NCBI GenBank assembly: GCA_902363675.1 | Contig: CABJAV010000006.1 | Coordinates: 71,025 to 135,024, forward strand | Direction of reading: 5' to 3' | Source: Lachnospiraceae bacterium | GTDB lineage: Bacteria > Bacillota > Clostridia > Lachnospirales > Lachnospiraceae | DNA: 64,000 bases | Part shown: piece after piece, positions 24,437-42,698 of the stretch | Layout: the number at the start of each line of letters is the position of its first letter | How positions within the stretch are numbered: position 1 is the stretch's first letter | Notes under the pieces: generated by a model | Seen by the model: the letters and a program-made list of their open reading frames with translations, nothing else | Database searches by the model: none | Told to the model about the DNA's origin: nothing | Made by a program: the position numbers and the translations under genes

Positions 24437-24725
24437 TGTGATAACCTTTTTTGTGGGTTGTGCAGCATTTGCCGTCATGATGCTTGTAAAAATTCCTATA
24501 AAAAAATTGAATTGGGAACTGGCAAAAAGTGAATTACAATATAAACGTTTGAATATTTTCTTAATAATATTAACTTTTTTGGTAGCAATCATATGTTATT
24601 GCTTTGCATTGGTTTGGCTTGGGGAAACGCATTTTAAATTATGTTGTGCTATAAAGGGGGCATCCGTTGCGATGGCATTTTATGCAATTTATGAACAATG
24701 GTGCGGAGATGACAGAAAAAGTTAA
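24429..24725 (+). CDS. Small three-helix membrane protein, copy 2 (unknown)
   Basis: A 98-residue paralogue of the preceding protein. It starts MNSVITFFVGCAAFAVMMLV, has KIPIKKLNWELAKSELQYKRLN, then two more helices and AIYEQWCG near the end. ATG 24429 overlaps the previous stop codon, so translation is coupled. Function unknown. Confidence 0.58.
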   Translation: MNSVITFFVGCAAFAVMMLVKIPIKKLNWELAKSELQYKRLNIFLIILTFLVAIICYCFALVWLGETHFKLCCAIKGASVAMAFYAIYEQWCGDDRKS

Positions 24726-24765
24726 GAATAGAGAGGTTTGGTTACAAATAAAAATGGAGGAGAAT

Positions 24766-25932
24766 ATGTCAATTTTAGCCAATTATCTAGCACAATTGAT
24801 AAAAGCACAGTTAAATGGAGAGAAGCCTGTATCTGTGCCAGAAGAAATACAAGTAGAAGATCTGATACATCTGTCCTGCAAAAATCATATGGAATATCTT
24901 GTTATGGGGGCTTTGTTAAAAACGGATGGAATTTCGGAAGAGATACAGGGGATACTTCGTAGTCACGTGATGAGAAGTATTGTTCGAACTACGACACAAA
25001 TAATGGATTTGAAAGAGATCATAAGACGTTTCGAAGAGAAGAAAATTGTAAATCAACCCATGAAGGGGGCACAGATGAAATTTATATATCCGTCTCCAGA
25101 GATGAGGGAAATGTCGGATATCGACATTTTGATTCGCCATGATTGCATGGATCGGGCTGCGGAAGAGTTAAAGGACATGGGGTATGTTTTAGAGCAGGCA
25201 ATTAAGCATCATGATATATATGTGAAAGAACCTTTTATGGTCGTTGAAGCACATCGTGCAATGTATGATAAAACGGTGGACAATAATCAGTATGAGTATT
25301 TTTCAAATTTTTCCAAAGCAATATTGAAAAAGGGATATAAATATACTTATGATTTTAATGATGAAGATTTTTATATCTATATGATTGCACATATGGCAAA
25401 ACATTTTTATGTAAAAGGATGCGGAGTACGTAATCTTGTAGATATTTATGTATATTTAAATGCAAAAGAAGATGTTTTAAATCATAAATATGTGGAGGAA
25501 GAGTTGAAAAAACTTGGATTATCAACATTTACAAAACATATGGAAAAACTTGCGTTTGCATGGCTGGATCAAAAACCATTTACGGAATTTCAACAGCAGG
25601 TATTTGACTATATGTTAGACAGCGGTATCTATGGAAAGGACGAAAATGGAATTTGGAATAAGTTTTCTGAATTTAAAATGAAGGGGAAAGAAGTGTCAAA
25701 GTTTCGATTAAAATTGTGGTATTTTTTTCCACCAGTCGTGTATATGGCTGAATATTATCCGTGGATTGAAGGAAAACCATTTTTACTTCCGATTGCGTGG
25801 GGAATCCGGGCATGCAGAGGAATTTTTATGAGAAAAGGGACAGATAAAAGAAAAATGATTCATGAAATTGAACAGGAACAGGTTCAAGTGTATAAGAATA
25901 TATATCAAAAAATGCAGTTGCATTTTAAATAA
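24766..25932 (+). CDS. Nucleotidyltransferase-like protein (NTP_transf_5 type)
   Basis: The ~388-residue protein carries MKGAQMKFIYPSPEMREMSD followed by IDILIRHDC (about residues 96-125), the KG...YP...R...DIDIL pattern of the uncharacterised NTP_transf_5 nucleotidyltransferases, then EAHRAMYD (about 160-167). Such proteins are recurrent companions of paeninodin-type lasso clusters and also of EPS loci. Here it lies 6 kb from the lasso genes, so membership is possible but unproven. ATG 24766 follows GGAGG; a longer frame from 24667 overlaps the previous gene and is less likely. Confidence 0.75.
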   Translation: MSILANYLAQLIKAQLNGEKPVSVPEEIQVEDLIHLSCKNHMEYLVMGALLKTDGISEEIQGILRSHVMRSIVRTTTQIMDLKEIIRRFEEKKIVNQPMKGAQMKFIYPSPEMREMSDIDILIRHDCMDRAAEELKDMGYVLEQAIKHHDIYVKEPFMVVEAHRAMYDKTVDNNQYEYFSNFSKAILKKGYKYTYDFNDEDFYIYMIAHMAKHFYVKGCGVRNLVDIYVYLNAKEDVLNHKYVEEELKKLGLSTFTKHMEKLAFAWLDQKPFTEFQQQVFDYMLDSGIYGKDENGIWNKFSEFKMKGKEVSKFRLKLWYFFPPVVYMAEYYPWIEGKPFLLPIAWGIRACRGIFMRKGTDKRKMIHEIEQEQVQVYKNIYQKMQLHFK

Positions 25933-29806: not shown

Positions 29807-32035
29807 ATGAAAAATAAGAGAGTATTGCGTGCAACAGCAGTGCTGTTGGGAATGGTAACATTATTGACAGGGGTCGTCTTTGGATTAAAATCATCAGTGA
29901 ATATAGATGATGATCCGATTGCTCTTGGAGGAACGGAAGTGTCTGAAGATTTTTTGGTACATCAGACGGAGGATGATGTGAGAATAATTCCAGATAAGTA
30001 TAATACTGGAGCAAAAGGAACACTGATCAACGTAGAACTCGGGGGAATGGTTGGAGATATTCAACTTGTTGCAGGCAGTGGGGGAACAAAAAACGTATTC
30101 GATTTTTATTACCGAAATAAGAATATTGAGGGAACGGTTACATTAGAAAATTATGATTTTTCAAAATATCCGTTAGTTTTGTATAAGGCTGATAAAGTAG
30201 AGAAAAATATAAATTTTGTTTTTAATAATTGTAAATTTTCTATGGTATCGGTAGGAAACAAAAGCGCAAGTATTTCTTATGCATTCAACAACTGTACTAT
30301 TGAAAATTTTTATGGAAGCAATGCAAAATTCAGCAAATGTAAGATTGGTGGCAGTTATTATGATGGAATAAATCCTTTTCAGAACGTAGAAGTGACAGAT
30401 TGTTTCATTTCAGATTTTGGAAGTACAAAGGATACTGGTAAGGAGATTCATTCAGATGGAACACAGATTTATGGGGCGGCAGATGCAGAGGTAAAGAATA
30501 TTTCATTTGACAATTGCAGGTTTGAAATTCCGCCGGTTGCTCCGGCTGGCAGCAATGCATATGTAAATTCCTGTATTATGCTTTCTTTGGAATATAGTAA
30601 TGCAAAAGCAGTTCAATTTTCAAATTGTATTTTAAATGGAGGCGGATATACGATATATACCTGTGCCAAAAAGGATAATTTTAAATTAGAGGATATTAAT
30701 TTATCAAATTTGCGCGTGGGATGCGCAAAGAAATATGGTACCATTTATTACAAAATATCTCCAGGTGTGACTTATGATACGGTGGAAGATACAGAGGCTT
30801 TGTATGTTGCATCCGTATGGAAAGAAAACGGAAATACGCATTTTAGTGTTAGTAACGACACGAATAAGGAGAGGACACTGAAAATTATTACAAAGTCTGG
30901 GGCATATGATTATACAATTCCGGCTTGCAAAAATGGAAACGATATGTCGGAGGAGGATACGTATGCAGAGATGCCGTTTGATGTCGATATTACAATTGCA
31001 GAAGATGCGGAATATGCAATCTGTTATGATACGACAATTGAAGGATGCGCGAAGCAGATTCGATTTATGAACTGGGGAGATGCCAAGGTATATCTTACCA
31101 AGGAACAATTCTCAACATTATTTTCTGGAGCGGAAGATGTGCTGTATTCTGGACAATGTGGGAAAAATGTAGAGTATGAATTGAATAAAAAAGGCGAGCT
31201 TACATTGGAAGGAACTGGAGACACATATTCTTATAGTTCGGGAAAACCAGCTCCATGGACAAATTACAGCGATTTGGTAAATGATGTAAAAGTAGAAGAA
31301 GGTATTGAGGGATTAGGACAACAGTTATTTAGAAACTGTACAGCAATTAAAAAGGTTTCTCTGCCAGATAGTCTTACAAAAATAGAAACAAGAACCTTTT
31401 TCGGATGTACGGGATTGCGAACCATTACGTTACCAGCAGCATTAGAAAGTCTTGGAGATTATTCTCTGCCATACGAAACCCTTACAAGTGTATATTATGA
31501 TGGGTTGCAGTGGGATAAAGTATATGTATCTGCTAAAAATGAGGGATTAAATGATAAATTATACTTGAATGAAACAAATGAAGAAACGGATATTCTCGAG
31601 AATGGAAAATGCGGAACAGATGCGACTTACACCCTTTCAAAGAGTGGTGTGTTGAAGATTACCGGTACCGGAGAAACTTACAATTATAATACTGGGAAAC
31701 CCGCACCATGGTATGATAACCGGGAGCTGATTGTAAAGGTAGAAATTAGTGAAGGAATTACCGCCATTGGAGAACAGTTATTCAGAAAGTGCAGTAATAT
31801 ATCGGAAATTGATTTGCCGAATGGTATCGTTAAGATTGGGAAGAATGCATTTATTTCCTGTAGTAATTTGCGTAGCATAATAATTCCTGGCTCGGTCGAA
31901 GAAATCCAGACACGTGCATTTGATGCAACAGCACTGGAATCGGTCAAATATCAGGGAACAAAGGAACAGTGGGATAAAATTGTAATTGGTAATTTTAATA
32001 CGAGACTGGTTGAAAATATTTCATTTACAGAATAA
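29807..32035 (+). CDS. Exported beta-helix / BspA-type LRR protein (module 2)
   Basis: The 742-residue protein has an N-terminal hydrophobic segment (AVLLGMVTLLTGVVFGL, signal peptide or anchor) and a beta-helix region (about 60-430) with the same landmarks as the 27010 protein: IPDKYNTGAKG, HSDGTQIYG, CRFEIPPVAPAGSNA. Two BspA-like LRR modules follow (about 445-590 and 600-742), each opening GKCG/GQCG...L..TGTGETY-like and containing LP...I....F..C. The shorter paralogue has only one. It may bind or process the EPS; role unknown. Confidence 0.72.
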   Translation: MKNKRVLRATAVLLGMVTLLTGVVFGLKSSVNIDDDPIALGGTEVSEDFLVHQTEDDVRIIPDKYNTGAKGTLINVELGGMVGDIQLVAGSGGTKNVFDFYYRNKNIEGTVTLENYDFSKYPLVLYKADKVEKNINFVFNNCKFSMVSVGNKSASISYAFNNCTIENFYGSNAKFSKCKIGGSYYDGINPFQNVEVTDCFISDFGSTKDTGKEIHSDGTQIYGAADAEVKNISFDNCRFEIPPVAPAGSNAYVNSCIMLSLEYSNAKAVQFSNCILNGGGYTIYTCAKKDNFKLEDINLSNLRVGCAKKYGTIYYKISPGVTYDTVEDTEALYVASVWKENGNTHFSVSNDTNKERTLKIITKSGAYDYTIPACKNGNDMSEEDTYAEMPFDVDITIAEDAEYAICYDTTIEGCAKQIRFMNWGDAKVYLTKEQFSTLFSGAEDVLYSGQCGKNVEYELNKKGELTLEGTGDTYSYSSGKPAPWTNYSDLVNDVKVEEGIEGLGQQLFRNCTAIKKVSLPDSLTKIETRTFFGCTGLRTITLPAALESLGDYSLPYETLTSVYYDGLQWDKVYVSAKNEGLNDKLYLNETNEETDILENGKCGTDATYTLSKSGVLKITGTGETYNYNTGKPAPWYDNRELIVKVEISEGITAIGEQLFRKCSNISEIDLPNGIVKIGKNAFISCSNLRSIIIPGSVEEIQTRAFDATALESVKYQGTKEQWDKIVIGNFNTRLVENISFTE

Positions 32036-32054
32036 GGGTAGGTGGAAATGTCAG

Positions 32055-32480
32055 ATGAATCCAATTAACTTTTTGAAATATAATCCGCAGAAACGATTAA
32101 CAGTATATGCATATATATATTCCGCAATTTATCGTTTAGAATTATTTTTTATTAAACCAAAATATTTACAGAAACATTGGGGAATCGAAGGAAAAGAATC
32201 ACCGGAAGAAGAAGCTCCATGGAAATACCGGTATGCGATGAATGTATCAAGGGTTGTGAACCGGATCTGCTCTAAGACGGCATGGGAAAGTAAATGTCTG
32301 GTACGTGCATTGACTGCACAAAAAATACTTAAGAAAAAGGGAATACATTCTACATTGTATTTAGGATGTGGGATGGAAGCTGAAAAGATGGTGGCACACG
32401 CCTGGTTGAGATGCGGAAAAATGTATGTGACCGGTGGTGATGGAACTGGATATTCTATTGTAGATAAGTTTTGTGCTTGA
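32055..32480 (+). CDS. Lasso peptide biosynthesis B2 protein (leader peptidase)
   Basis: The 141-residue protein matches the stand-alone transglutaminase-like B2 family: WESKCLVRALTAQKILKKKG with catalytic Cys81, LGCGMEAEKMVAHAW with catalytic His115, and an Asp downstream (TGGDG, Asp129). B2 cleaves the precursor leader so that the cyclase can close the ring. ATG 32055 is favoured; a GGTGG site lies 9 bp upstream. It precedes precursor A1 by 112 bp on the same strand. It is the only B2 gene seen, so it probably serves both precursors. Confidence 0.87.
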   Translation: MNPINFLKYNPQKRLTVYAYIYSAIYRLELFFIKPKYLQKHWGIEGKESPEEEAPWKYRYAMNVSRVVNRICSKTAWESKCLVRALTAQKILKKKGIHSTLYLGCGMEAEKMVAHAWLRCGKMYVTGGDGTGYSIVDKFCA

Positions 32481-32523
32481 ATATATGTCGAAAAATTTAA
32501 TTCTAACAATCATGATAGAAAAG

Positions 32524-32552
32524 TTTACCCAATATGTAGGATATGCTAGACT
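32524..32552 (+). promoter_or_regulatory. Promoter of lasso precursor A1
   Basis: TTTACC (32524-32529), 17-bp spacer, TAGACT (32547-32552), 41 bp before the precursor ATG; TATAGT at 32554-32559 is an alternative -10. Confidence 0.45.
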
Positions 32553-32592
32553 TTATAGTGTCAATAGATATTGAGTAAAGGAGAATAATATT

Positions 32593-32775
32593 ATGAAAAA
32601 TTGGAGAAACGCAGAAATTGTAGAACTGAACATTAACGAGACAGCACAGGGTGGCAAGGATAGTACACGTGTCGATGGAATGTGGACAGATAGAAATACA
32701 GGTAATGCATGGGCTAGTTTCGCAAGTGGTGGAAACGCAGGCGGACCTGAAATTGATGTAAGACCAATACAGTAG
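32593..32775 (+). CDS. Lasso peptide precursor A1, 60 aa
   Basis: The leader reads MKNWRNAEIVELNINETAQ and shares MKxW....I.ELNINETA.G with the precursor on the other strand at 37748-37909. This is the paeninodin-type pattern (aromatic residue, conserved Leu, Thr near the cleavage site). The core most likely starts at Gly20, giving Asp28 as ring position 9; starting at Gly21 makes it position 8. The 41-residue core is long for the class, ends RPIQ, and lacks a C-terminal Ser. AAAGGAG lies 9 bp before ATG 32593. A terminator follows at 32791-32832. Its neighbours are B2 upstream and a convergent cyclase downstream. Confidence 0.82.
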   Translation: MKNWRNAEIVELNINETAQGGKDSTRVDGMWTDRNTGNAWASFASGGNAGGPEIDVRPIQ

Positions 32776-32790
32776 AAATGGCAAATATGA

Positions 32791-32832
32791 AACCACCTCA
32801 ATTCCGATAATTGGAATTGAGGTGGTTTTTTA
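32791..32832. terminator. Bidirectional terminator between precursor A1 and cyclase C1
   Basis: Arms AACCACCTCAATTCC (32791-32805) and GGAATTGAGGTGGTT (32813-32827) with T runs on the + strand side. It stops A1 transcription and lies 10 bp beyond the 3' end of the convergent cyclase gene. Confidence 0.9.
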
Positions 32833-32841
32833 ATGAAAGAA

Positions 32842-34779
32842 TTAAGACGGATGGTCGTAATTAGACAAATAGTAACTGAGTGAAACTGTATAGAGCAAAT
32901 AGATAATCGGCTTGCTGTCACATTTAGGGTTAAGCTGCTTGTGAGTTTTGCAAAATGTTATCATTTCATTTATTTTATCTTGTTTTAAATAAGTTGATAA
33001 CTGAGGATTATTTATAGTTTCCAGGATATTCAAACGATCCTGTTCCCATGATCGGGCTAAGCGATATATATAATCGCCACCCTGTAATCCACGGTGAGCA
33101 GTGTCAGTGGTGATATGTTCGGGAAGAATATCAGCCAGATAGCCGCGCACCAGATAACGTTCGATTCCATGTGACACAAAGCAGGTCATTGGAAGTGTAA
33201 GACATAATTCAATCATTCGTTTATCCTTGGTAGGATCGCGTTCTATAATACCATGAAGCAGACTTGAAATTGTATTGTACAGTCCAATCTGCTGAAAAGT
33301 AATTTGAGAGCAAATGTTATTGCGTCGTTGAGAATCGGTAAGCAGTGAGCCGTTTCCACAGGAGTGGAAGAGTTTTTGGTTCTGATACTTTATATGATAT
33401 TTGTTTATCAGATTATCTCGGACATTTCCGTTCTTGTATGTGGATGAAATGCCGAAATAATCACAACATTTCTCTTTCCAGGCAGAATAAAAAGTATGTA
33501 AAAAATATTTTTTTGGTACATGATTTTTTTTCAGAAAATCACATATAGATTGTTTTGCCTGTATTAGATGAAACGTTCGCATTTGATGATAGGTGAGGGA
33601 TAAAATATCTCCATAAGAAAGTGTCCCATTCCCCATCTGCCCGGTTAATTGTATTTTGCAACCTCTGGCATGTGCATCGTGGTTGACTTGATATATCCAG
33701 CTTAGATTTATCGCGGATTTTATTGGTAGATCATATTCTTCTACAAACTTCTTCAGATGCGTGAGAGCGTTTTCTCCTTTACAGTCAATAAAATGACTTT
33801 TAATATTCGGAAAACATGCCACGGTTTTTTTTACAGCTGAAGATTCATCCGGAACAAAATAGGCATCTGATTCGTAATCGTGTGCTTCATCTGGAATGGA
33901 AGTATAAGTATGTAAGATTTCACCGCGCTTTTCTAAAAATGGGGCAGCAATACTGACGATGGATGTCGAGTCAAGTCCACTGCTTAAGTTTGCTGCTATC
34001 TGTGTTCCGGGACGAAGTAAATCCTCTACGCATTTGCGGAAGGTCTGAACGACCAGATCTTTGTATTGCTCTTCTTCCTGATAATGGATTTTTTTACACT
34101 TCTGCGGCTTCCAATATTGGATTTCAGATAATTTTCCATTTGTATATTTGATATAATGTGCAGCCTTTAACTGGAATACCTCTTCGAAAGGGGTAAGTCC
34201 CGGAAAAGCAAGCATACATGCGGACGGTTCAGATTCACATGCAGTAATCCATTTTTCAGATAATTTTAATTGTTCAGAGGAAAAGCACTCTTTAAACAAA
34301 TCGTAGGTGGTACAGAAATATAATGTCTGACCTTGCAGAGAATAGTTGATGCATCGATTTCCGACATGATCGGTATAGAGCAGGAAAGTGTCTGTATCCG
34401 GTACATAGATGGCAAAAGAAAAAGCACCGAGCAGATGTTCCACAAAACGTTCTCCCCATGTCAGGTAGGCATGATAACTGAGAAGTCCATCCGGGATGTC
34501 AGCATCTGTAATATGAAGTTCTTGCATAAGTTCCGGACGGTTGTCCAAAATACAATCTGCAGTAAAAAAAATATTACGTTCCTTATCATGGTAAGGAAGG
34601 ATTTCATGTACGGCTTCCGGTGTAAAATACTGGTGACCACATGCAAAATAGAATTTGTCGCTTAGCAGATCATCGATACGGTCAATTTTATATTTTCCCA
34701 TTCTTTTTTTCATGGAAACAGAGAGTTCGGGTTGGATATTTGATTCGCTATGTGAAAGGATTCCCCATATGGCAGCCAT
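32842..34779 (-). CDS. Lasso peptide cyclase C1 (asparagine-synthetase-like)
   Basis: The 645-residue protein has a glutaminase-type N-terminal domain that begins MAAIWGILSH, so the catalytic N-terminal Cys of true asparagine synthetase is absent. The synthetase domain carries the ATP-pyrophosphatase motif SSGLDST (266-272). C proteins adenylate the ring Asp/Glu side chain and close the macrolactam. The gene overlaps the stop of the kinase-like gene by one base (coupled). It is last in the minus-strand block A2-C2-K1-C1. Which precursor it uses is not known. Confidence 0.86.
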   Translation of the reverse strand: MAAIWGILSHSESNIQPELSVSMKKRMGKYKIDRIDDLLSDKFYFACGHQYFTPEAVHEILPYHDKERNIFFTADCILDNRPELMQELHITDADIPDGLLSYHAYLTWGERFVEHLLGAFSFAIYVPDTDTFLLYTDHVGNRCINYSLQGQTLYFCTTYDLFKECFSSEQLKLSEKWITACESEPSACMLAFPGLTPFEEVFQLKAAHYIKYTNGKLSEIQYWKPQKCKKIHYQEEEQYKDLVVQTFRKCVEDLLRPGTQIAANLSSGLDSTSIVSIAAPFLEKRGEILHTYTSIPDEAHDYESDAYFVPDESSAVKKTVACFPNIKSHFIDCKGENALTHLKKFVEEYDLPIKSAINLSWIYQVNHDAHARGCKIQLTGQMGNGTLSYGDILSLTYHQMRTFHLIQAKQSICDFLKKNHVPKKYFLHTFYSAWKEKCCDYFGISSTYKNGNVRDNLINKYHIKYQNQKLFHSCGNGSLLTDSQRRNNICSQITFQQIGLYNTISSLLHGIIERDPTKDKRMIELCLTLPMTCFVSHGIERYLVRGYLADILPEHITTDTAHRGLQGGDYIYRLARSWEQDRLNILETINNPQLSTYLKQDKINEMITFCKTHKQLNPKCDSKPIIYLLYTVSLSYYLSNYDHPS

Positions 34780-35705
34780 TAGTTATCCTCCTCGGAATGA
34801 AAAATTATTTTCTGAATCTTTTGAAGCTGTGTATCGGTGCTGTCAATTCCGAATGGACGCATCATGCGATAGAGTGGAAGTGTTTGTACCGTTAGCAGAC
34901 ATTTTTGCATATCCTCGACGCAAAAACCACCGGAATTGCGAAACATTGGAAAAAGAAAGTTATTTTCCAAAAAAGAAATTAGTTTTTGATGTCCGTTCAA
35001 TTCTGTTAAAAGTACATCGCTATCTTCATTTTGGACGGAAAGGCAGAGCATTGCGGACAGTTTACAAGGACTTTCGCAAAAACAGTTACGGCGTGGAACT
35101 GCAAATTTGTCGCGGTCCTCATCAATATAAAGAAGATCTTCGGTGTTCAAATGATTCCGGTGTACGGCATCCCGACAGAGTTTTTGCTGTGGAAATGCAG
35201 GATAAACCATGATATCCCCTTCTGAAGAAATATCAACAATTGCTACATCATCCGTCATCAGACGGAAGCCTTTTTCAAGCAGTTTTGTCGTAAGTGTTGA
35301 TTTTCCGGAACCGCTGTCTCCGGCGATGATTAGAGCATTCCCATCATGTTCTACAGCACTGCAGTGAATTGCAAGCTGATTACGCTGCCAAAAGAGCATA
35401 GCAATACAATATCCAAATACAAAAGGAGTTAGTTGATTCATAGAAATTCCTTCTTTTGGACATATATCAATGATTATCCCGTCTGTGATCTGAAAAATTC
35501 CTACCTGATTGCAAAACAAAATATGAGTTTTGGTGATAGGAGATACATAATATGTGGTTTCTTTTTCTGCCATAGATAAAAGAGATGATGTAGTTTTTAT
35601 GTAAATATCTGCGTCGCGCTCATCTGTTGGAATTAGATGTGAATATTCGATTTCTGAGCAGAGCGTAGTTCCATAAATTTTGTACCAAAATAATTCGTTG
35701 TTCAT
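34779..35705 (-). CDS. HPr-kinase-like lasso peptide kinase K1
   Basis: The 308-residue protein has LAIHCSAVEHDGNALIIAG followed by P-loop GDSGSGKST (129-137) and GFRLMTDDVAIV, the HPrK/P core. It lacks the N-terminal DRTGG-like domain and the K/P-loop partner region of true HPr kinase. Homologues in paeninodin-type clusters (PadeK, ThcoK) phosphorylate the C-terminal Ser of the precursor. It lies between two cyclases in one operon with precursor A2, which ends in Ser. The start is ATG 35705 with a weak AAGG site. Confidence 0.83.
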   Translation of the reverse strand: MNNELFWYKIYGTTLCSEIEYSHLIPTDERDADIYIKTTSSLLSMAEKETTYYVSPITKTHILFCNQVGIFQITDGIIIDICPKEGISMNQLTPFVFGYCIAMLFWQRNQLAIHCSAVEHDGNALIIAGDSGSGKSTLTTKLLEKGFRLMTDDVAIVDISSEGDIMVYPAFPQQKLCRDAVHRNHLNTEDLLYIDEDRDKFAVPRRNCFCESPCKLSAMLCLSVQNEDSDVLLTELNGHQKLISFLENNFLFPMFRNSGGFCVEDMQKCLLTVQTLPLYRMMRPFGIDSTDTQLQKIQKIIFHSEEDN

Positions 35706-35760
35706 AATAAAATTACCTTATTTGTTTTTAAAACGGATGTAAATAAAACTATCATAATTG

Positions 35761-37662
35761 TTAGAATTTCTCAGAGGTCTTCTCAATAAGATTTTGAGTC
35801 ATCACGCAATAGAACAGATTCATTAAAACAAAAGAATCATGGTCACGTTCTTCTTCGGAAGGCTTTCCTTTTTGCATCCACTGATCTATTACGGCAAAAT
35901 CAAGGTATTTTGACCAGAAAGTCCGGTCTAATTTCTTGTTGACGATTGTTTTCATTTCCGCAAACTCCTTGTACCAATTGGGATTAGAAGGATAATTTTT
36001 GGCGCTCATGTCTTCCTTGATATGAACGGAATACAAAGATTTTGGCATAATGTCACGAAATGCTTCGCGGAAAATAAAGCGGTTATGCGAATTTTTCAGG
36101 TATAGGTGCCGTGGAATCGATACAGCAAAGTCAATAACGCGGTAATCAAGGTATGGAACGATGTAGCGAATATTGTTGTAAGCGCCCAATAATGCGACAT
36201 TGTCCAGACGATTCCGACTGCCTCCATCCGCAATGTATCGAATCGGATCATAAGAAAAATGTAAGGCGGGCATATCCTTTTCAGAAAAATGACTGCGGAA
36301 GTTCTTGTTCAAAAATTCAGGTGTGGCAAAAACTGTGCAAAATGCACCAGTTAAAGTGCGGCGTTTCGGTCCGAGCTGGTTTTTACAGGCTTTAAGTGTT
36401 CTAAAAATACGTCCTTTTTGTCCATGGGTTGAGGACCACATAGAACGGAAAAAATGGTAGTACTCATGGTGATAAAACATTTCGTAAGGAGAACTGCGAT
36501 GACTGATTCCTTCGTCACCGCCGTGTCCGGTAAATATAACGGAGGCTCCGTTTTCGTGCATGCATGAACAAGAATCACAAAGTGCCATGGCATTGATATA
36601 TGGTGGCATTGCATAGCGGAGTGCCGGTGGTTCGTTTTCATCCAAGGAAAATCCTAAAGATTGCATTTGCCGGGCAAGAAGGCTATTCATACTGCGATCA
36701 CTTTTCATCTGACTGTAGTGGCATTGGATATGTTCCTGTTTACAAATATCTTTAATAATTAAACGTTCGTCATGGTCCGCATAGGGAATTTCATTCGGAT
36801 CGACTGACCAGGAAAAATAAACACAGTCGCGGCCGAGACGATGAATTAAAATACCAATGACACCGGAATCGAGTCCGCCAGAGAGCTCAGCACCGGCTTT
36901 TCCCGGAATTGCCTGCAGACGACGCTGAATGGAATCCGTTACAAGTTCTTTGAGTTTTGCTTTATACAGTTCGAAAGAAGTGTAGTGAATTTTCTTTTTA
37001 CCCAATTGCCAATAGCTGTGGATTTCCTGACTTATTTTTTCATTTTTTATAGAAAAAGTTATATAGGATGCTGGGGAAACACAGAAAATATTCTGATATT
37101 CTGTACTTGTTACACTGTCAACAAAATATCCGGAAAGCGTTCGGTAAATCCAGTCTTCATTAAGAGAAGAATCTACACCGTCTAATCCTAAAAGACCACG
37201 AATGTCCGTAGAAAAAGCCATAAAGGAATTGTCTGCGTAGTAATATAATGGGCGGATGCCCATATGATCGCGAAAGAGGGTCAGTGTTTGTGCATTCTCA
37301 TCATATATGACACCGCTAAAGTCTCCATTGACATCTTTTAGTGCGCTCATACCAAATTGCGTGAGATAAGATAGCAGGAGCTCCTCGTCGGAAATGGAAG
37401 TTGGGGCATTGCATTTTATAATCAGTTCTTCACGGTTATACAGAAGTAGATCTATAGCCGCATACATGGAGTTCATATGTAAAATGGGAGAAGTTGTGGT
37501 ATGTGTGGCTAACATTTGCAGACAACATCCAATTTGTATATTGTTTTTTTCAAAGATTTGTTTTGCATCCCGGCCATAAGCATTGTTCCATAAAATAAGT
37601 TTTTTCTTATTTTTATCCTGTGTATGTATCGAATTGCAAAATGTTCCAAAAATACCGCTCAT
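35761..37662 (-). CDS. Lasso peptide cyclase C2 (asparagine-synthetase-like)
   Basis: The 633-residue protein starts MSGIFGTFCNS, again without the Cys2 needed for glutaminase activity. It has SGGLDS (261-266) for ATP binding and HGGDEG-type GHGGDEGISHRS later. It diverges from C1, so the two are old paralogues rather than a recent copy. ATG 37662 has GGAGGA 6 bp upstream. Precursor A2 lies 86 bp upstream across a terminator, so C2 is the natural partner of A2. Confidence 0.87.
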   Translation of the reverse strand: MSGIFGTFCNSIHTQDKNKKKLILWNNAYGRDAKQIFEKNNIQIGCCLQMLATHTTTSPILHMNSMYAAIDLLLYNREELIIKCNAPTSISDEELLLSYLTQFGMSALKDVNGDFSGVIYDENAQTLTLFRDHMGIRPLYYYADNSFMAFSTDIRGLLGLDGVDSSLNEDWIYRTLSGYFVDSVTSTEYQNIFCVSPASYITFSIKNEKISQEIHSYWQLGKKKIHYTSFELYKAKLKELVTDSIQRRLQAIPGKAGAELSGGLDSGVIGILIHRLGRDCVYFSWSVDPNEIPYADHDERLIIKDICKQEHIQCHYSQMKSDRSMNSLLARQMQSLGFSLDENEPPALRYAMPPYINAMALCDSCSCMHENGASVIFTGHGGDEGISHRSSPYEMFYHHEYYHFFRSMWSSTHGQKGRIFRTLKACKNQLGPKRRTLTGAFCTVFATPEFLNKNFRSHFSEKDMPALHFSYDPIRYIADGGSRNRLDNVALLGAYNNIRYIVPYLDYRVIDFAVSIPRHLYLKNSHNRFIFREAFRDIMPKSLYSVHIKEDMSAKNYPSNPNWYKEFAEMKTIVNKKLDRTFWSKYLDFAVIDQWMQKGKPSEEERDHDSFVLMNLFYCVMTQNLIEKTSEKF

Positions 37663-37698
37663 TGGGTTCCTCCAGTTAAGTTTTTCTCATTTTATCGT

Positions 37699-37729
37699 AA
37701 AAAAAGAACTCCTGTCAATCCGACAGGAG
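37699..37729 (-). terminator. Terminator/attenuator between precursor A2 and cyclase C2
   Basis: Read on the minus strand, CTCCTGTC and GACAGGAG arms (37709-37729) are followed by a T run (37699-37706). It would let the precursor be made in excess, with partial read-through to the enzyme genes. Confidence 0.85.
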
Positions 37730-37747
37730 CCTGTAATTGAATCTGAA

Positions 37748-37909
37748 TTATGAATGTGCGTTTGTGTCTGGATCTGGAGCAACCGGCTTGTTTTCATTTC
37801 TGTCACCAAAAACGATATCGAAAGGTCCTTCATAGCCGACCTTGAAATATCCGTTTGCAGTTTCGTTAATGTTTAACTCGGTGATACTAGGTGTATTCCA
37901 TTTTTTCAT
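37748..37909 (-). CDS. Lasso peptide precursor A2 with C-terminal Ser, 53 aa
   Basis: The minus-strand ORF begins MKKWNTPSITELNINETAN, with a W-x-x-P motif equivalent to the Y-x-x-P recognised by B1. With the core at Gly20, Glu27 would be ring position 8 (position 9 if Asn19 starts the core). The tail ends PVAPDPDTNAHS, closely resembling the PDPD...H..S end of paeninodin, whose last Ser is phosphorylated. The core is 34 residues. GGAGGA lies 7 bp before the ATG at 37909-37907. Its own promoter (37951-37978) and terminator (37699-37729) flank it. Confidence 0.87.
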   Translation of the reverse strand: MKKWNTPSITELNINETANGYFKVGYEGPFDIVFGDRNENKPVAPDPDTNAHS

Positions 37910-37950
37910 AATGTCTTCCTCCATTAAACCTTATAAATAATTATAATCTA

Positions 37951-37978
37951 ATTATACAGCTTTGTCGAAACCAGTCAA
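37951..37978 (-). promoter_or_regulatory. Promoter of precursor A2
   Basis: On the minus strand, TTGACT (37978-37973), 16-bp spacer, perfect TATAAT (37956-37951), about 40 bp before the precursor ATG. It is divergent from kinase K2. Confidence 0.7.
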
Positions 37979-38070
37979 TATATCTAACAAAAATGATAGA
38001 GTTGAAAGAATAGAGGATACAAATAACAGTCAATGTGTTAAGATGAAGAAAAACAAAAGGGAAAAGGGTC

Positions 38071-38994
38071 ATGGAAAGATATTGTTTATATGGAATGTCT
38101 CTTGTTTCGGATCTTGCGTTTCCACAACTTGTTAAAGAGACAGAAGAATATCGGCGGCAGCATCCGGATGACTGGCAGATTGAGATTGTAAAGGGAAAGA
38201 TCCCGCAGGATATCCGGGAACGTACCGACGTAAAATACGAGTTTGGGGATGATTTCAGCTGGCTGGTAAACAGTACGGCATGGATCATCGTGGAGAACGG
38301 AAAACGGATTACTTACGAGTTGAAGGAAGGCGGCAGGGTGGATTATCTGCGCTCGTATCTTCTGGGATGGGGAATGTCCATGCTTGCTTTGCAGAGAGGA
38401 ATACTTGCAATCCATTGCAGCGCAGTGGCGGATGAAGCAGGTGCGATTCTGATCTGTGGGGAGAGCGGAGCCGGTAAATCAACCGTGACGACCGCTTTTT
38501 TGGAAAAAGGGTATCGCCTTATGGCCGATGATATGGCCTTTGTTGAGGTGACGGAGGATGGAATTGCAATGGCAAGCCCGGCATTTCCGTATCAGAAGCT
38601 TTGCAGAGATGCGGCGCTTGCAAAAGGATATCATATGGAAAATATGATATATATAGATGAAGAGAAAGACAAATTTCTTGTGCCGTATACCGGAAATTTC
38701 TCTCTTTACCCAGTTCCGGTACGTGGCATGTGTATGCTTGGCATTGTTTCGGGAAAGCAGGTTGTATCAGCAAAAATAAAAGGCATGGATCAATTTCATC
38801 TTGTTGCCAATAATCTATTTTTGCGGCACTTACTTGGAGCAAAGAAATATGAGCCGAAGATTGGACAGCTTTGCCTGAAGATGGCAGCGTCTGTGCCTTG
38901 CGGTTTTATAGGAAGACCGCAGAAAGGGGATTACATCGAAGCGATTATGGATTCTGCAACGGAATTTTTAAATGAATGGACAGCTGAAAAATAA
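38071..38994 (+). CDS. HPr-kinase-like lasso peptide kinase K2
   Basis: The 307-residue paralogue of K1 has LAIHCSAVADEAGAILIC then GESGAGKST (130-138) and GYRLMADDMAFV. Shared landmarks are SPAFPYQKLCRDA and IYIDEEKDKFLVP. It is transcribed divergently from A2, upstream of B1 and the exporter. Two kinases with one Ser-ending precursor suggest that one has another target or is specialised; that is inference. Start ATG 38071, with an AAAGGG site. Confidence 0.82.
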   Translation: MERYCLYGMSLVSDLAFPQLVKETEEYRRQHPDDWQIEIVKGKIPQDIRERTDVKYEFGDDFSWLVNSTAWIIVENGKRITYELKEGGRVDYLRSYLLGWGMSMLALQRGILAIHCSAVADEAGAILICGESGAGKSTVTTAFLEKGYRLMADDMAFVEVTEDGIAMASPAFPYQKLCRDAALAKGYHMENMIYIDEEKDKFLVPYTGNFSLYPVPVRGMCMLGIVSGKQVVSAKIKGMDQFHLVANNLFLRHLLGAKKYEPKIGQLCLKMAASVPCGFIGRPQKGDYIEAIMDSATEFLNEWTAEK

Positions 38995-38996
38995 AT

Positions 38997-39025
38997 TTGA
39001 ATTAGAAAATCGGGTATAGTATAAT
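38997..39025 (+). promoter_or_regulatory. Promoter of B1 and exporter genes
   Basis: TTGAAT (38997-39002), 17-bp spacer, perfect TATAAT (39020-39025). It starts at the K2 stop codon and gives B1-D a separate promoter. Confidence 0.75.
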
Positions 39026-39090
39026 TATAACTATTCAGTTAATTATATAGATTACATTTTAAATATGGAAAAGCAGAAGGAGAATTTAGT

Positions 39091-39363
39091 ATGAAACGTG
39101 ATCAGGCAATCGAATTAAAGAAAACACTTAATGTAACGGACCTTGCAGGGGAAAAGGTTATGGTAGATTTTGAGCAGGGCAAGTATTTTATGATTAAGGG
39201 AACCGGAAATGACATCTGGGATATGTTACAGGAAAACAAAAATATTACACCGGGAGAGATTATTGATAAACTGCTGGCAGAGTACGAAGTCAGCCAGGAG
39301 GAATGTGAAGCGTCTGTGATGGAGTTCCTGGGAAAAATGCAGGAATTAGGCTTTATTGCCTAA
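39091..39363 (+). CDS. Lasso peptide biosynthesis B1 protein (PqqD-like leader recognition)
   Basis: The 90-residue protein has the winged-helix RRE pattern: VTDLAGEKVMVDFEQGKYF, then GTGNDIWDMLQENKNITPGE and LLAEYEV..EEC..SVMEFL. B1 binds the leader and presents it to B2 and the cyclase. ATG 39091 has AAGGAG 8 bp upstream. It is the only B1 in the window, followed 18 bp later by the exporter. Confidence 0.9.
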   Translation: MKRDQAIELKKTLNVTDLAGEKVMVDFEQGKYFMIKGTGNDIWDMLQENKNITPGEIIDKLLAEYEVSQEECEASVMEFLGKMQELGFIA

Positions 39364-39381
39364 GCATGAGAGGGTAATAAT

Positions 39382-41061
39382 GTGATAAAACGATTAAAAA
39401 CTATGTGGGATGACAGGGAGAATCAGGCACGGTATATGAAGTGGCTGATGCAGTATTCCAAGCCGTACATAGGAAAAATTATACTTGTCATGCTTCTCGG
39501 AATTGCAAGTACGGTTGCGTCACTTGTAATGGTTCAGATTTCAAAGGTTATCATCGACAATGCCTCTTTTGGAAATGCGTTTGTCCGGCTGCTGGTTGTT
39601 TACCTGTTGCTGATGTTGTTGATGCAGGGAATTTCCATTGTAAATACGCTGGTATCTACGATGTTAACGGAGCGTTTTTCGTTCGGCATAAGAAAACAGA
39701 TTTACGAAAAGATCATTCGGTCACACTGGATGAGTATTACAAAGTATCACACGGGCGATTTGATGACTCGGCTGACCAGTGATGCGGGAAATATTGCGGA
39801 TGGTATTATCGGAACGATTCCAAATATCATAATGCTTATTGTAGAACTGGTTATGGTATTTTTTACATTGTTCTATTATTCGCCGCTGCTTGCAATTCTT
39901 GCGCTTCTGGTGGCACCGGTTGCAGCAATCATGGCATGGTGGCTCGGCAAAAAGCTTCGCGTATTGCAGAAAAAAGTGCAGGAGACGGAATCTGCATACC
40001 GGTCATTTTTGCAGGAGAGTATGGCAAACCTTCTTGTTGTAAAGGCTTTTACAAATGAAGATTATTCGGTGAATCGATTGACCGATTTGCGGGAGAATCG
40101 TTTTTACTGGGTATATAAAAAGACAAAAATGGGAGTGATAAGCTCGACGGCAATGTCATTGGCATTTCAGCTCGGATATATCGCAGCATTTTCATACGGC
40201 GTATACCAGATTGCAAATGGAGCAATTACATATGGAACGATGTCGGTTTTCCTGTCATTGGTGAACCGTGTGCAGTCACCTGTGCTGGAATTGGCGCAGC
40301 AGGTTCCAAGGATTGTCATGATTCTGACCTCCACAGGACGAATTGTTGAGTTGCAGAATATTCCGTTGGAGGAAAGCAGCAAGAAGCAGATCGAGGCAAA
40401 AAAAATTGGTGTCAAGGTTGAAAATCTTTCCTTTGGATATACGCAGGAACCTGTGTTAAAGGATACGTCATTGACGATTGAGCCGGGGGAGTTTGTAGCA
40501 ATTATCGGAGAATCCGGTATTGGTAAAACGACACTGATTCGCCTGATCATGTCTTTTATGAATACTTATCAGGGTTCGATTACGTATTTTAATGAAAAAG
40601 GAGAGACAGAACCGGCAAATGCCGCGACACGTGAATTTGTCTCCTATGTACCGCAGGGCAATACATTATTTAGCGGAACAATCCGTGAAAATATCCGTAT
40701 TGGTAACCTGAATGCAACAGAAGAAGAAATGTGGAAAGCACTTCGCATGGCATCGGCAGAAACTTTTATCAGGAATCTTCCGCAGGGACTTGACACAGTA
40801 ATCGGTGAGAGAGGACATGGACTCTCGGAAGGACAGGCGCAGCGTATTGCAATCGCCAGAGCCTTTGTACGCAAAGCCCCGTTTTTGATTTTGGATGAGG
40901 CAACTTCGGCATTGGACGAGGATACAGAGATGGCAGTGATACAGGGACTGCAGGAACTTACACCAAGACCGACCTGCCTGGTAATTACACATAGAAAAAG
41001 CATTTTACAATATTGTGATCGCGAAATAAAGATCGAAAATAAAAAAGCATCGGATTTATAA
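39382..41061 (+). CDS. ABC exporter of the lasso peptide(s) (D protein)
   Basis: The 559-residue half-transporter has a six-helix membrane domain (about 25-320) and a nucleotide-binding domain with Walker A GESGIGKTT (about 372-380), signature LSEGQAQRIAIARAF and Walker B FLILDEATSALD. There is no N-terminal C39 peptidase domain, as expected for lasso exporters where B2 does the cleavage. The start is GTG 39382. It would export the mature peptide and give self-immunity. Confidence 0.88.
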   Translation: MIKRLKTMWDDRENQARYMKWLMQYSKPYIGKIILVMLLGIASTVASLVMVQISKVIIDNASFGNAFVRLLVVYLLLMLLMQGISIVNTLVSTMLTERFSFGIRKQIYEKIIRSHWMSITKYHTGDLMTRLTSDAGNIADGIIGTIPNIIMLIVELVMVFFTLFYYSPLLAILALLVAPVAAIMAWWLGKKLRVLQKKVQETESAYRSFLQESMANLLVVKAFTNEDYSVNRLTDLRENRFYWVYKKTKMGVISSTAMSLAFQLGYIAAFSYGVYQIANGAITYGTMSVFLSLVNRVQSPVLELAQQVPRIVMILTSTGRIVELQNIPLEESSKKQIEAKKIGVKVENLSFGYTQEPVLKDTSLTIEPGEFVAIIGESGIGKTTLIRLIMSFMNTYQGSITYFNEKGETEPANAATREFVSYVPQGNTLFSGTIRENIRIGNLNATEEEMWKALRMASAETFIRNLPQGLDTVIGERGHGLSEGQAQRIAIARAFVRKAPFLILDEATSALDEDTEMAVIQGLQELTPRPTCLVITHRKSILQYCDREIKIENKKASDL

Positions 41062-41077
41062 TCCTTTGCTTTTTTTT
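41041..41077. terminator. Bidirectional terminator between exporter and histidine kinase genes
   Basis: AAAAAAGCA...GGAT / ATCC...TGCTTTTTTTT with a short internal mismatch. It overlaps the 3' end of the exporter gene, and T/A runs on both sides serve the convergent genes. Confidence 0.75.
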
Positions 41078-41079
41078 AT

Positions 41080-41904
41080 TTACGGATTTATATGAATTGG
41101 GAGCTGAATTGTGAAAGTACTTCCTTTTCCAGGCTGACTGGTACAGGAAACGGTTCCATTATGTCGTTCTACAATGGCTTTCACGATTGCAAGTCCCAGA
41201 CCGCTGCCGGTGGCAGAATTTGGAGTGCGTGAAGCGGAAACCGTATAGGTACGGCCAAACAGGTGTGGCAAGGCTTCCGGTGGAATGCCTGGACCATTAT
41301 CACTGACGGCTATCTGTAAAAATTGATGATCCGAAGTGATTTTGGCGTGCAAAGTGATGGAGCTTCCTTTTGGCGTGTATTTTGCGGCATTTGTAAAAAG
41401 ATTATCGAGTACACGTACCATTTTCTGGACATCGATATCGATTTGACATTGTAAATCTTCCGGAAGATCTAAAATCATTTCATGATCATCGTAAAGACTT
41501 GCGGCTGTGGCATCGTAAAAGTATTCTTCCAGGAAAGGCAAGGCATCGATTGGCTGCAGATCCAGTTCTTTTGAGGTGTCTTCCACACAAAAAAGATAAT
41601 ACATATCCTGTATGAGATTTTCCAGAGTGGCAGTCCTGTGATTAATCAGACGGATGGATGATTCATAGTCTTCCAGACGGATATTCTGTCCGGAGGTGAG
41701 ATAATCGATCGCGCTGCGGATTGCTGTAATGGGAGCACGCAGATCGTGGGAGATGTTGGCCAGCATGGTTTCTCGTTCCTGCTGCAATTTTTCCAGTTCC
41801 CGATTGGCGTTGGAAAGCTGTAAATTGGCTTCCAGCAATTTTTGCGATAAGCTTTCGATACTTTCCGGTTCAATGGAAGGGGATAAAAACGTTTGTTTTT
41901 CCAT
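41080..41904 (-). CDS. Soluble sensor histidine kinase without transmembrane segment
   Basis: The 274-residue protein has an N-terminal coiled coil (about 15-48) and H box ISHDLRAPITA with the phospho-His (about residue 55). The N box is DNLFTNAAKYTP, with G boxes DNGPGIP and GSGLGLAI. No membrane helix, PAS or GAF domain is visible, so the signal must reach it through the coiled coil or a partner protein. It lies just behind the response regulator gene (34-bp gap), and the pair lies between the lasso exporter and the EPS priming enzyme. Confidence 0.87.
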   Translation of the reverse strand: MEKQTFLSPSIEPESIESLSQKLLEANLQLSNANRELEKLQQERETMLANISHDLRAPITAIRSAIDYLTSGQNIRLEDYESSIRLINHRTATLENLIQDMYYLFCVEDTSKELDLQPIDALPFLEEYFYDATAASLYDDHEMILDLPEDLQCQIDIDVQKMVRVLDNLFTNAAKYTPKGSSITLHAKITSDHQFLQIAVSDNGPGIPPEALPHLFGRTYTVSASRTPNSATGSGLGLAIVKAIVERHNGTVSCTSQPGKGSTFTIQLPIHINP

Positions 41905-41938: not shown

Positions 41939-42625
41939 CTATTTCATAATGAGACGGTAGCCTTTGGACCATACAGTTTCAATCATATTTTTTAACTCGT
42001 AATTGTTTTCGAATTTTTTGCGGAGCCGGCTGACGTTAACCATGACAGAACGTCGGTCAGAGTCCTGATAATAGCCAAACAGGGCAGTGCCTAATTCTTC
42101 GAAAGTCACTTCCTGATTTGGGTGTTCTGCGAGATAGAGTAGTACTTCATATTCGCGATTGGCAAGTCCGAGATCTTCACCCTGAAATATTGCTTTGTGC
42201 GCGATTTTATCGATAGTCAGATTTTGAATTTGAATCAGATTATTGTTCGGAACCTGCTGTGTCTTTGCAAATCGGCGGAGCAGAACATCGATTCTGGCGC
42301 GCAGCTCACGCAGACTGTAGGGCTTTACCATATAATCATCCGCACCTGTGAGCAGTCCGTTGATTTTATCATCTTCGGAACTTTTTCCGGTCAGAAAAAT
42401 GATTGGAACATCGGAAAATGTACGGATTTTTTTACAAACCTGATAACCATCCGCCTGTGGCATCATAATGTCCAGAATAATACAGTCTGGTGAAATCTGA
42501 CAAATCAGTTTCAGTGCGTCGGTCGGATTGGATGCGGTGTAAACGCTGTAGCCTTCTCCGGAAAGGTATTTGCAATTAATAGAAAGAACTTCATCATCGT
42601 CATCAATTAGCAGTAATGTTGACAT
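41939..42625 (-). CDS. OmpR-family response regulator
   Basis: The 228-residue protein has a receiver domain starting TLLLIDDDDEV, phospho-acceptor Asp in CIILDIMMPQADG and Lys in MVKPYSL. A winged-helix output domain follows (NREYEVLLYLAEHPNQEVTF, YYQDSDRRSVMVNVSRLRKK). ATG 42625-42623 has GGAG upstream, so the longer frame from 42661 is not needed. It may control the divergent EPS priming gene or the lasso genes. Confidence 0.9.
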   Translation of the reverse strand: MSTLLLIDDDDEVLSINCKYLSGEGYSVYTASNPTDALKLICQISPDCIILDIMMPQADGYQVCKKIRTFSDVPIIFLTGKSSEDDKINGLLTGADDYMVKPYSLRELRARIDVLLRRFAKTQQVPNNNLIQIQNLTIDKIAHKAIFQGEDLGLANREYEVLLYLAEHPNQEVTFEELGTALFGYYQDSDRRSVMVNVSRLRKKFENNYELKNMIETVWSKGYRLIMK

Positions 42626-42658
42626 AATATACTCCTTTTTGCGACTGTCAAAATGTAT

Positions 42659-42673
42659 CATTACAAAGTAATG
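42659..42673. promoter_or_regulatory. Small perfect dyad between response regulator and EPS priming gene
   Basis: CATTAC (42659-42664), AAA, GTAATG (42668-42673). It is a possible operator in the divergent control region. Confidence 0.35.
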
Positions 42674-42698
42674 CTATCATAAAATGAAGGAAATGAAC

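What the first reader, a model, noticed from the sequence alone, without database searches (positions are those of the whole stretch)
32055..41061. Twin lasso-peptide locus inserted in an EPS gene cluster: two precursors, two cyclases, two kinases, one shared B1/B2/exporter set
Seen: B2 and precursor A1 on the + strand; precursor A2, cyclase C2, kinase K1 and cyclase C1 on the - strand; kinase K2, B1 and ABC exporter on the + strand. The two precursors share the leader pattern MKxW....I.ELNINETA.G but have unrelated cores. From family knowledge, B1 binds leaders, B2 cleaves them and C closes the ring. The single B1/B2 probably serves both cores. The set lies between the Wzx flippase and the priming enzyme of an EPS locus. 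I do not know of a described two-product system with duplicated cyclase and kinase.
Basis: partly seen in the sequence, partly recalled or inferred. Interest (0 to 1): 0.88.

Follow-up and report, generated by a model that had tools for sequence, protein, structure and literature searches.

The report
Two-armed lasso-peptide gene cluster
A gut-type bacterium's gene cluster appears to make two different knotted (lasso) peptides, each with its own ring-closing enzyme and probably its own kinase, from one shared set of leader-handling and export genes; some related bacteria carry the same two-armed plan.

Summary
In detail: every named gene is an intact reading frame. B2 passes its curated lasso model; B1 and both cyclases have lasso families as best match but below the cut-offs. 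Neither cyclase has the glutaminase cysteine.

Relatives show two arms. Precursors beside C1-type cyclases carry Glu at core position 8 (11 of 11); precursors nearest C2-type cyclases carry Asp9 (25 of 28). Cores are otherwise about 16-18% identical. A wider search gave Glu8 in 118 of 120 listed A2-type precursors, although its profile contained Glu8. Of 13 relatives with C1, 11 have B1 and B2, nearly always one copy each. One relative lacks C1, and its A2-like precursor lacks Glu8 (L001).

Best reading: two dedicated lasso peptides whose rings differ by one residue, closed by dedicated cyclases and probably phosphorylated by separate kinases, sharing B1, B2 and the exporter: a new variant of the paeninodin-like kind. 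Threading, products, phosphorylation and cleavage site are untested.

The parts
24667..25932 (+). NTP_transf_5 nucleotidyltransferase, the tailoring gene typical of paeninodin-type lasso clusters; set apart from B2 here by two glycosyltransferases and two LRR proteins
   Evidence: PF14907 149.7 bits; relatives of it lie next to B2 in L004, L006, L008, L026, L081, L083 and L095
32055..32480 (+). B2 leader peptidase (shared)
   Evidence: NF033537 73.6 bits against cut-off 33; PF13471 71 bits
32593..32775 (+). Precursor A1 (60 aa): leader 32593-32649, core from Gly at 32650, acceptor Asp9 (arm I)
   Evidence: ORF; D9 class and W-x-S-F-x-S-G tail
32793..32831 (+). Terminator-like hairpin after A1
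   Evidence: Read directly from the sequence; the scan does not list it
32842..34779 (-). C2 macrolactam (lasso) cyclase of arm I
   Evidence: NF033535 198.5 bits, below cut-off 525; no Cys2; PP-loop SSGLDS; start overlaps the K1 stop by one base
34779..35705 (-). K1 HprK-like kinase of arm I
   Evidence: TIGR04352 55.6 bits, below cut-off 200; H..GxSGxGKS..DD; outside the K2 clade of the kinase tree
35761..37662 (-). C1 macrolactam (lasso) cyclase of arm II
   Evidence: NF033535 191.7 bits, below cut-off 525; separate clade 100/100
37707..37731 (-). Terminator/attenuator-like hairpin between A2 and C1
   Evidence: the number of such hairpins in the region is near chance
37748..37909 (-). Precursor A2 (53 aa from the better start): leader 37909-37853, core from Gly at 37852, acceptor Glu8, C-terminal Ser (arm II)
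   Evidence: NF033524 14.8 bits, below cut-off 27
38071..38994 (+). K2 HprK-like kinase of arm II
   Evidence: TIGR04352 44.1 bits, below cut-off 200; K2 clade 99/99
39091..39363 (+). B1 leader-binding protein (RRE, PqqD-like; shared)
   Evidence: PF05402 70.3 bits; NF033536 72.3 bits, below cut-off 80; nearest solved chain PbaB1 9x90_B
39382..41061 (+). MsbA-like ABC exporter (shared)
   Evidence: PF00664 and PF00005
41080..41904 (-). Histidine kinase without an evident membrane segment (by eye), likely regulator of the cluster
   Evidence: HisKA and HATPase_c; homologues near related clusters
41939..42661 (-). OmpR-type response regulator
   Evidence: Response_reg and Trans_reg_C

Best explanation
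The locus encodes a two-armed lasso-peptide pathway. Shared B1 would bind the similar leaders of A1 and A2, and shared B2 would remove them. Arm I (A1, K1, C2) would close Gly1 onto Asp9; arm II (A2, K2, C1) would close Gly1 onto Glu8. Each kinase would phosphorylate a Ser in its own core before cyclisation: the C-terminal Ser of A2, and probably a Ser of the W-x-S-F-x-S-G tail of A1. The nucleotidyltransferase, perhaps with the EPS glycosyltransferases, could then cap the phosphate, and one exporter would release both products. Shown by sequence: gene content, acceptor classes that follow the neighbouring cyclase type, separate cyclase and kinase clades, and mostly single B1/B2 per relative genome. 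Inferred: ring closure, threading, phosphorylation, capping, the cleavage site, and which kinase acts on which core. The positions 8 and 9 assume cleavage just before Gly (Thr at -3). If Thr is at -2 they become 9 and 10; the one-residue difference between the arms stays.
For: Glu8 in 11 of 11 precursors beside C1-type cyclases against 1 of 28 assigned to C2-type; Asp9 in 25 of 28 against 0 of 11; Fisher p 7e-9 (for rows treated as independent, which they are not); 0 of 20,000 core shuffles reached either count. Mean identity at the other core positions 16% and 18%. Glu8 in 118 of 120 listed members of the A2-type family, last residue Ser in 106 of those 118. C1-type and C2-type cyclases form separate groups with 100/100 support. 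The six kinases within 500 bases of a C1-type cyclase all fall in the K2 clade; the 18 within 500 bases of a clade-IIa C2-type cyclase (the clade of the window's C2) all fall outside it (my count from the tree). L001 matches the window's order but lacks the C1 gene, and its A2-like precursor has no Glu8. Of 13 relatives with C1, 11 have B2 (one copy in 10) and 11 have B1 (one strong copy each). B1's nearest solved relative is a paeninodin-type leader binder. One published B1 of a phosphorylated lasso cluster, BsfB1, also aids phosphorylation (PMC10368454, abstract and passages).
Against: Both cyclases score below NCBI's lasso-cyclase cut-off, all their relatives scanned also match the asparagine synthase model, and their nearest folds are general AsnB-type enzymes; PMC13352647 states that no lasso cyclase crystal structure exists (passage). 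A1's leader has W-x-x-A, not W-x-x-P. The acceptor rule spans essentially one cyclase divergence, so the precursors are not independent. The 120-protein search used a profile that already contained Glu8. Three C2-type precursors depart from Asp9 (two Asp8, one Glu9), and one of the 25 with Asp9 also has Glu8. K2-clade kinases sit beside C2-type cyclases of other subclades more often (13 rows within 500 bases) than beside C1-type ones (6 rows), so kinase clade and ring class are not matched one to one. Two relatives with C1 (G307, G379) show no B1 or B2. Four of 15 stretches with a C1-type gene gave no precursor: three lie at contig ends or are partial (L007, L081, L082), one (L086) showed none. 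No whole genome is held for the window, so its own B1/B2 count is known only for these 64 kb.
Confidence: 0.74

Rival explanations
1. Two lasso arms, but cleavage follows the classical rule with Thr at -2. Then the A2 core starts at Asn (Asn1-Glu9) and the A1 core at Gln (Gln1-Asp10).
For: The W-to-T spacing is 13 in all 40 precursors, and PbaA, with W at -15, would have the same spacing if its Thr is at -2 (recalled). Thr at the penultimate position is the usual rule (PMC10368454, passages). Metanodin shows that Asn can be residue 1 (PMC12670498, passages).
Against: All 120 listed A2-type proteins have Gly right after T-x-x, and so do the 39 curated cyclase-linked precursors (where the search pattern required it), while the residue before that Gly varies (N, H, D, Q, Y, F, G, S, A). 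A 10-residue ring would be unusual (recalled). PMC7533575 places Gly first with Thr at -3 in this group, and PMC13289728 used Gx7D.
Confidence: 0.2
2. C1 is an AsnB-like peptide ligase or amidating enzyme that does not make a threaded lasso: an unthreaded macrolactam, or another modification of Glu8.
For: C1 keeps an AsnB-like GHGGDE motif in 11 of 13 sequences where C2-type enzymes mostly read G-x-x-G-N (the AsnB likeness is recalled). C1 scores higher to AsnB models than C2 does. The nearest fold is the hydroxyamidotransferase TsnB9.
Against: No glutaminase Cys; lasso cyclase is the best family; A2-type precursors carry the leader, Gly and acceptor spacing expected of lasso precursors, and most genomes with C1 have lasso B1/B2.
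Confidence: 0.14
3. One arm, probably arm II, is decaying or silent and the cluster makes a single lasso peptide.
For: L001 lacks the C1 gene and Glu8. One short-contig variant of A2 (P0336) lacks five ring residues. Several single-cyclase clusters exist.
Against: All genes are open. Close C1 and C2 relatives stand for similar numbers of sequences (398 for P0101; 432 for P0001). Glu8 is kept in 118 of 120 listed A2-type precursors.
Confidence: 0.08
4. The two cyclases act together on both precursors, or redundantly, rather than as dedicated enzymes.
For: They lie on the same strand in one likely operon, A2-C1-K1-C2.
Against: The precursors split by acceptor class according to the neighbouring cyclase. 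A2-C1 pairs also occur without a C2-type gene in the fetched stretch (L074-L079), and C2-type clusters without C1 in the stretch.
Confidence: 0.05

Closest known systems
Paeninodin / pseudomycoidin-type lasso clusters of Bacillota (PMC9266682 passages; PMC13381572 abstract and parts of Results)
   Same: Discrete B1 and B2, AsnB-like cyclase, HprK-like kinase with the His-Lys-Asp-Asp motif, NTP_transf_5, MsbA-like exporter, W-x-x-P leader (A2), C-terminal Ser (A2), setting among polysaccharide genes.
   Different: Two cyclases 23% identical, two kinases 32% identical, and two precursors with different acceptors, for one B1/B2/exporter set.
Rumen Lachnospiraceae lasso clusters (PMC7533575, sections 14 and 16 and passages; PMC13289728, passages)
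   Same: Same family of leaders, Gly...Asp cores, kinases, nucleotidyltransferase, histidine kinase and glycosyltransferase neighbours; several genomes have more than one precursor.
   Different: What I read does not report paired cyclases. PMC13289728 required the motif Gx7D, which would exclude a Gly...Glu8 precursor without Asp9.
LPP (linear polyphosphorylated peptide) clusters beside lasso clusters in Bacilli (PMC13381572)
   Same: Two related peptide pathways side by side in capsule loci, each with a kinase.
   Different: LPP systems have their own RRE and an SpI-like peptidase and no cyclase; here one B1/B2 pair and two cyclases.
Two-peptide lantibiotic clusters with two LanM enzymes and one transporter (recalled, no call)
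   Same: Two precursors, two dedicated modification enzymes, shared export.
   Different: Different chemistry; nothing shows that the two peptides here act together.

Membership tests
Lasso-peptide biosynthetic cluster | B2 leader peptidase model NF033537 | tested here: met
   73.6 bits against cut-off 33
Lasso-peptide biosynthetic cluster | B1 PqqD-like leader binder (NF033536 / PF05402) | tested here: inconclusive
   NF033536 72.3 bits against cut-off 80, PF05402 passes, nearest solved chain is PbaB1
Lasso-peptide biosynthetic cluster | Lasso cyclase model NF033535 passed at its cut-off | tested here: not met
   198.5 and 191.7 bits against cut-off 525; it is nonetheless the best family for both. 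All members of both alignments hit it (25 of 25, 23 of 23), and all also hit the asparagine synthase model TIGR01536 (the window's C1 is a row of both)
Lasso-peptide biosynthetic cluster | Precursor with conserved Thr near the leader end, then Gly and an Asp/Glu at 7-9 | tested here: met
   A1 TAQ|G...D9, A2 TAN|G...E8; exact cleavage site inferred
Lasso-peptide biosynthetic cluster | Threaded product with isopeptide bond | not testable with these tools
   needs mass spectrometry
Paeninodin-type (phosphorylated) subfamily | HprK-like kinase with H-K-D-D residues | tested here: met
   K1 and K2 both match my pattern, as do 46 of 52 kinase rows; motif described in PMC9266682. NCBIfam HprK-related models are hit only below cut-off
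Paeninodin-type (phosphorylated) subfamily | W-x-x-P leader motif | tested here: inconclusive
   A2 WNTP yes; A1 WRNA no; Ala replaces Pro in 3 of 11 C1-linked and 8 of 28 C2-linked precursors, window included
Paeninodin-type (phosphorylated) subfamily | C-terminal Ser as phosphorylation site | tested here: inconclusive
   A2 ends in Ser, A1 ends in Gln; last residue Ser in 9 of 11 C1-linked and 3 of 28 C2-linked precursors
Paeninodin-type (phosphorylated) subfamily | NCBIfam precursor model NF033524 passed | tested here: not met
   A2 14.8 bits against 27; A1 no hit
True asparagine synthetase | N-terminal glutaminase Cys2 and TIGR01536 cut-off | tested here: not met
   C1 starts MSGIFG, C2 MAAIWG; 143.9 and 116.3 bits against 267.1
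LPP cluster | SpI-like leader peptidase and second RRE | tested here: inconclusive
   No spare ORF of that size was seen in the listing of 30000-43500 (by eye), and one PqqD protein among the nine scanned; no SpI family search was run

The most novel reading that the evidence does not exclude
The cluster is a two-component lasso system: two dedicated lasso peptides of different ring class are made, phosphorylated, sugar-capped through the nucleotidyltransferase and glycosyltransferases, exported together and act as a pair, perhaps attached to the exopolysaccharide whose genes surround them.
Probability: 0.1. Interest if true: 0.87.

Novelty: new variant of a known kind. Interest (0 to 1): 0.62.

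Why it matters
What decides ring size and acceptor residue in a lasso cyclase looks open to me; PMC13352647 says no lasso cyclase crystal structure exists (passage). Here nature supplies two diverged cyclases that share similar leaders, B1 and B2 but go with Glu8 or Asp9, so leader recognition is held constant and swap experiments test the cyclase alone. A2-type precursors (the search gave 242 hits, 120 listed and read) would be missed by the Gx7D rule used in a recent survey.

Tried and rejected
True asparagine synthetase: rejected (Cys2 absent, lower score). LPP-type second pathway: not favoured for this locus, since one RRE and no SpI-sized spare ORF were seen (no SpI search). Leader-based sorting of the two precursors: not favoured, since leaders are about as alike between arms (48% over 16 residues) as within arm I (45%), though 63% within arm II. 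Fully parallel descent of the two arms: not favoured; by eye, the C1 and C2 parts of the tree group partner genomes differently (no formal test). Recent tandem duplication: rejected (cyclases 23%, kinases 32% identical). Promoter and terminator scans were near chance, used only for the A2-C1 hairpin. A search for precursors beside cyclases without one gave nothing convincing except those already counted and one candidate in L103 with other spacing.

Rows left out before counts: L019, L087 and L089 were removed as duplicates; in my count of stretches also L084, L085, L092, L100 (overlaps) and L104 (not lasso-type). In one search, eight loci were skipped (L084, L085, L092, L100, L104, L022, L025, L082), as were cyclases of 500 aa or less, kinases outside 250-400 aa (such as a 690-aa one in L008) were left out and L027's kinase entered twice. 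L023's two precursors were left out as near copies of L010's, and L103's candidate. Each precursor was assigned by hand to the nearest cyclase; L012's two lie over 3 kb from theirs.

Papers: no listing of my seven searches showed a cluster with two dedicated lasso cyclases (an open-licence library, so most subscription papers were not searched, and most listed papers were not opened).
Full report
What is there. The window is a stretch of a bacterial genome, by its relatives probably a member of Lachnospiraceae; no whole genome is held for it and I did not name the species. B2 passes the lasso model NF033537. B1 falls just below its curated cut-off, and both cyclases fall far below theirs, but lasso families are the best match in each case. 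C1 and C2 are 23% identical, K1 and K2 32%, so this is not a recent duplication. Both cyclases begin without the glutaminase Cys, keep a PP-loop, and by predicted structure (mean pLDDT 86.5 for C1, 92.1 for C2) resemble TsnB9, AsnB and beta-lactam synthetase. The cluster also takes in an NTP_transf_5 gene and a histidine kinase/response regulator pair.

Relatives. One scan of named genome contigs with a C2 alignment gave 28 loci: 25 recorded as Lachnospiraceae or as Butyrivibrio, Lachnospira, Acetitomaculum or Acetatifactor, one as Clostridiales, one as 'bacterium', and one (L027) from Billgrantia. A C1 alignment found strong matches in further genomes. After removing duplicates I count 49 distinct stretches with a lasso-type cyclase in the listing, some of them partial; nine, the window included, hold two such cyclases: six pair a C1-type with a C2-type (window, L003, L007, L008, L073, L080) and three pair two C2-types (L006, L017, L026). 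Several stretches end at contig ends. In a sample of 397 genomes of the family, C1-type cyclases (E up to 1e-60) occur in 5 and C2-type ones above 400 bits in 10; three genomes have both, where chance would give about 0.13 (hypergeometric p 1.1e-4). At most three candidates per genome were scored in those two searches, so both counts may be low. The arrangement is rare but recurrent.

The acceptor rule. I curated 39 precursors, each assigned to the nearest cyclase of known type. With Gly as residue 1, all 11 next to C1-type cyclases have Glu at position 8 and none has Asp at 9. Of 28 assigned to C2-type cyclases, 25 have Asp9; the others have Asp8 (L016, L017) or Glu9 (one of L026). One of the 25, L094, has Glu8 as well as Asp9. 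Shuffling core residues within each peptide never reached either count in 20,000 trials. Other core positions agree only 16% and 18% on average. Of 15 stretches with a C1-type gene, 11 gave a precursor; L007, L081 and L082 lie at contig ends or are partial, and L086 gave none. A profile of eight A2-type precursors found 242 proteins, 120 listed; 118 of the 120 have Glu8. Of the two exceptions, P0319 was misparsed by my pattern and by eye also has Glu8, and P0336, from an 849-base contig, lacks five ring residues. That profile contained Glu8 itself, so the count is supportive rather than independent.

Tails and kinases. Nine of the 11 C1-linked precursors end in Ser, as paeninodin-type precursors do; 3 of 28 C2-linked ones do. 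Instead, 16 of 18 precursors of the C2 clade that holds the window's C2 (clade IIa, 19 rows) carry a [WY]-x-S-[FYWC]-x-S motif, absent from all 11 C1-linked cores and from the 10 other C2-linked ones. By my reading of the kinase tree, all six kinases within 500 bases of a C1-type cyclase fall in the K2 clade (24 rows), and all 18 within 500 bases of a clade-IIa cyclase fall outside it. Against a simple pairing, 13 of the 24 K2-clade rows sit within 500 bases of C2-type cyclases of other subclades, so the K2 clade is not tied to Glu8 alone. In the window the K1 stop overlaps the C2 start (TAATG), fitting a K1-C2 pair.

Shared leader handling. In 30 chosen genomes I counted B2 and B1. Thirteen carry a C1-type cyclase (G004 only as a fragment with a stop inside, G070 only in part). 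Eleven of the 13 have B2, one copy in 10 and two in G023; eleven have B1, one strong copy each, with a second weak hit in G004. Ten of the eleven also carry a C2-type cyclase. In G003, G015, G024 and G025 the C1 gene lies about 20-29 kb from B1/B2 on the same contig, and in G014 on another contig. G307 and G379 have C1 but no detectable B1/B2, through loss or incompleteness. Window B1's nearest solved chain is PbaB1 (9x90_B), whose complex with its leader is described in PMC13381572.

A natural deletion. L001 is the closest relative by C2 among the fetched loci (70%) and has the same order (K2, A2-like precursor, K1, C2, A1-like precursor, B2). C1 is missing: only a gap of about 80 bases with a terminator-like hairpin separates the A2-like precursor from K1. 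The best match to the C1 model anywhere in that genome is 87 bits, with all seven candidates scored, where true C1-type genes score about 800-1070. Its A2-like precursor keeps leader and C-terminal Ser but has no Glu8. It is one metagenome-assembled genome, so a suggestive case only.

How it most likely works. B1 presents both leaders; B2 cuts them; each core goes to its own cyclase and probably its own kinase; one exporter releases both. Phosphorylation before ring closure and capping by the nucleotidyltransferase follow paeninodin and pseudomycoidin as summarised in PMC9266682 (passages). The register is inferred: with Thr at -3 the rings have 8 and 9 residues; with Thr at -2 they would have 9 and 10, and metanodin shows that Asn1 is possible. 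The difference between the arms does not depend on this.

Known or new. Paeninodin-like clusters in capsule loci, kinases, nucleotidyltransferases and multiple precursors in Lachnospiraceae are in print (PMC13381572, PMC7533575, PMC13289728; sections or passages read). I found no description of a cluster with two dedicated lasso cyclases of different acceptor class in seven searches of an open-licence library. I file it as a new variant of a known kind.

Noticed in passing
window 26977-28680 and 29807-32035: Two related large proteins with BspA-type leucine-rich repeats lie before B2; homologues flank the C1 modules in L074 and L076. Could be partners, anchors or EPS-related surface proteins.
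   Followed up: no
window 41080-41904: The histidine kinase has no evident membrane segment by eye and is likely cytosolic; it and its regulator accompany many related lasso clusters.
   Followed up: partly
L014, L015, L018, L020, L025, L028, L097: Pairs of a K2-like kinase and a C2-type cyclase with no B1, B2 or convincing precursor in the fetched stretch (L025 was not in the search): possibly a separate phosphopeptide pathway or one served in trans.
   Followed up: partly
L001:1720-2016: A2-like precursor with C-terminal Ser but no Glu8 acceptor and no C1 gene: possibly a lasso arm turned into a linear phosphopeptide arm.
   Followed up: partly
P0336: A variant of the window's A2 on an 849-base contig lacks five ring residues.
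   Followed up: no
L010:12164-12756: Lachnospira multipara ATCC 19207 shows three adjacent precursors; Table 3 of PMC7533575 lists one for this strain.
   Followed up: no
L005:1456-3158: In Butyrivibrio sp. XPD2006 the homologue of the exporter is in two separate frames.
   Followed up: no
window 1082-1897: Protein with a weak camelysin-like (PF12389) match, below cut-off, near the window start.
   Followed up: no
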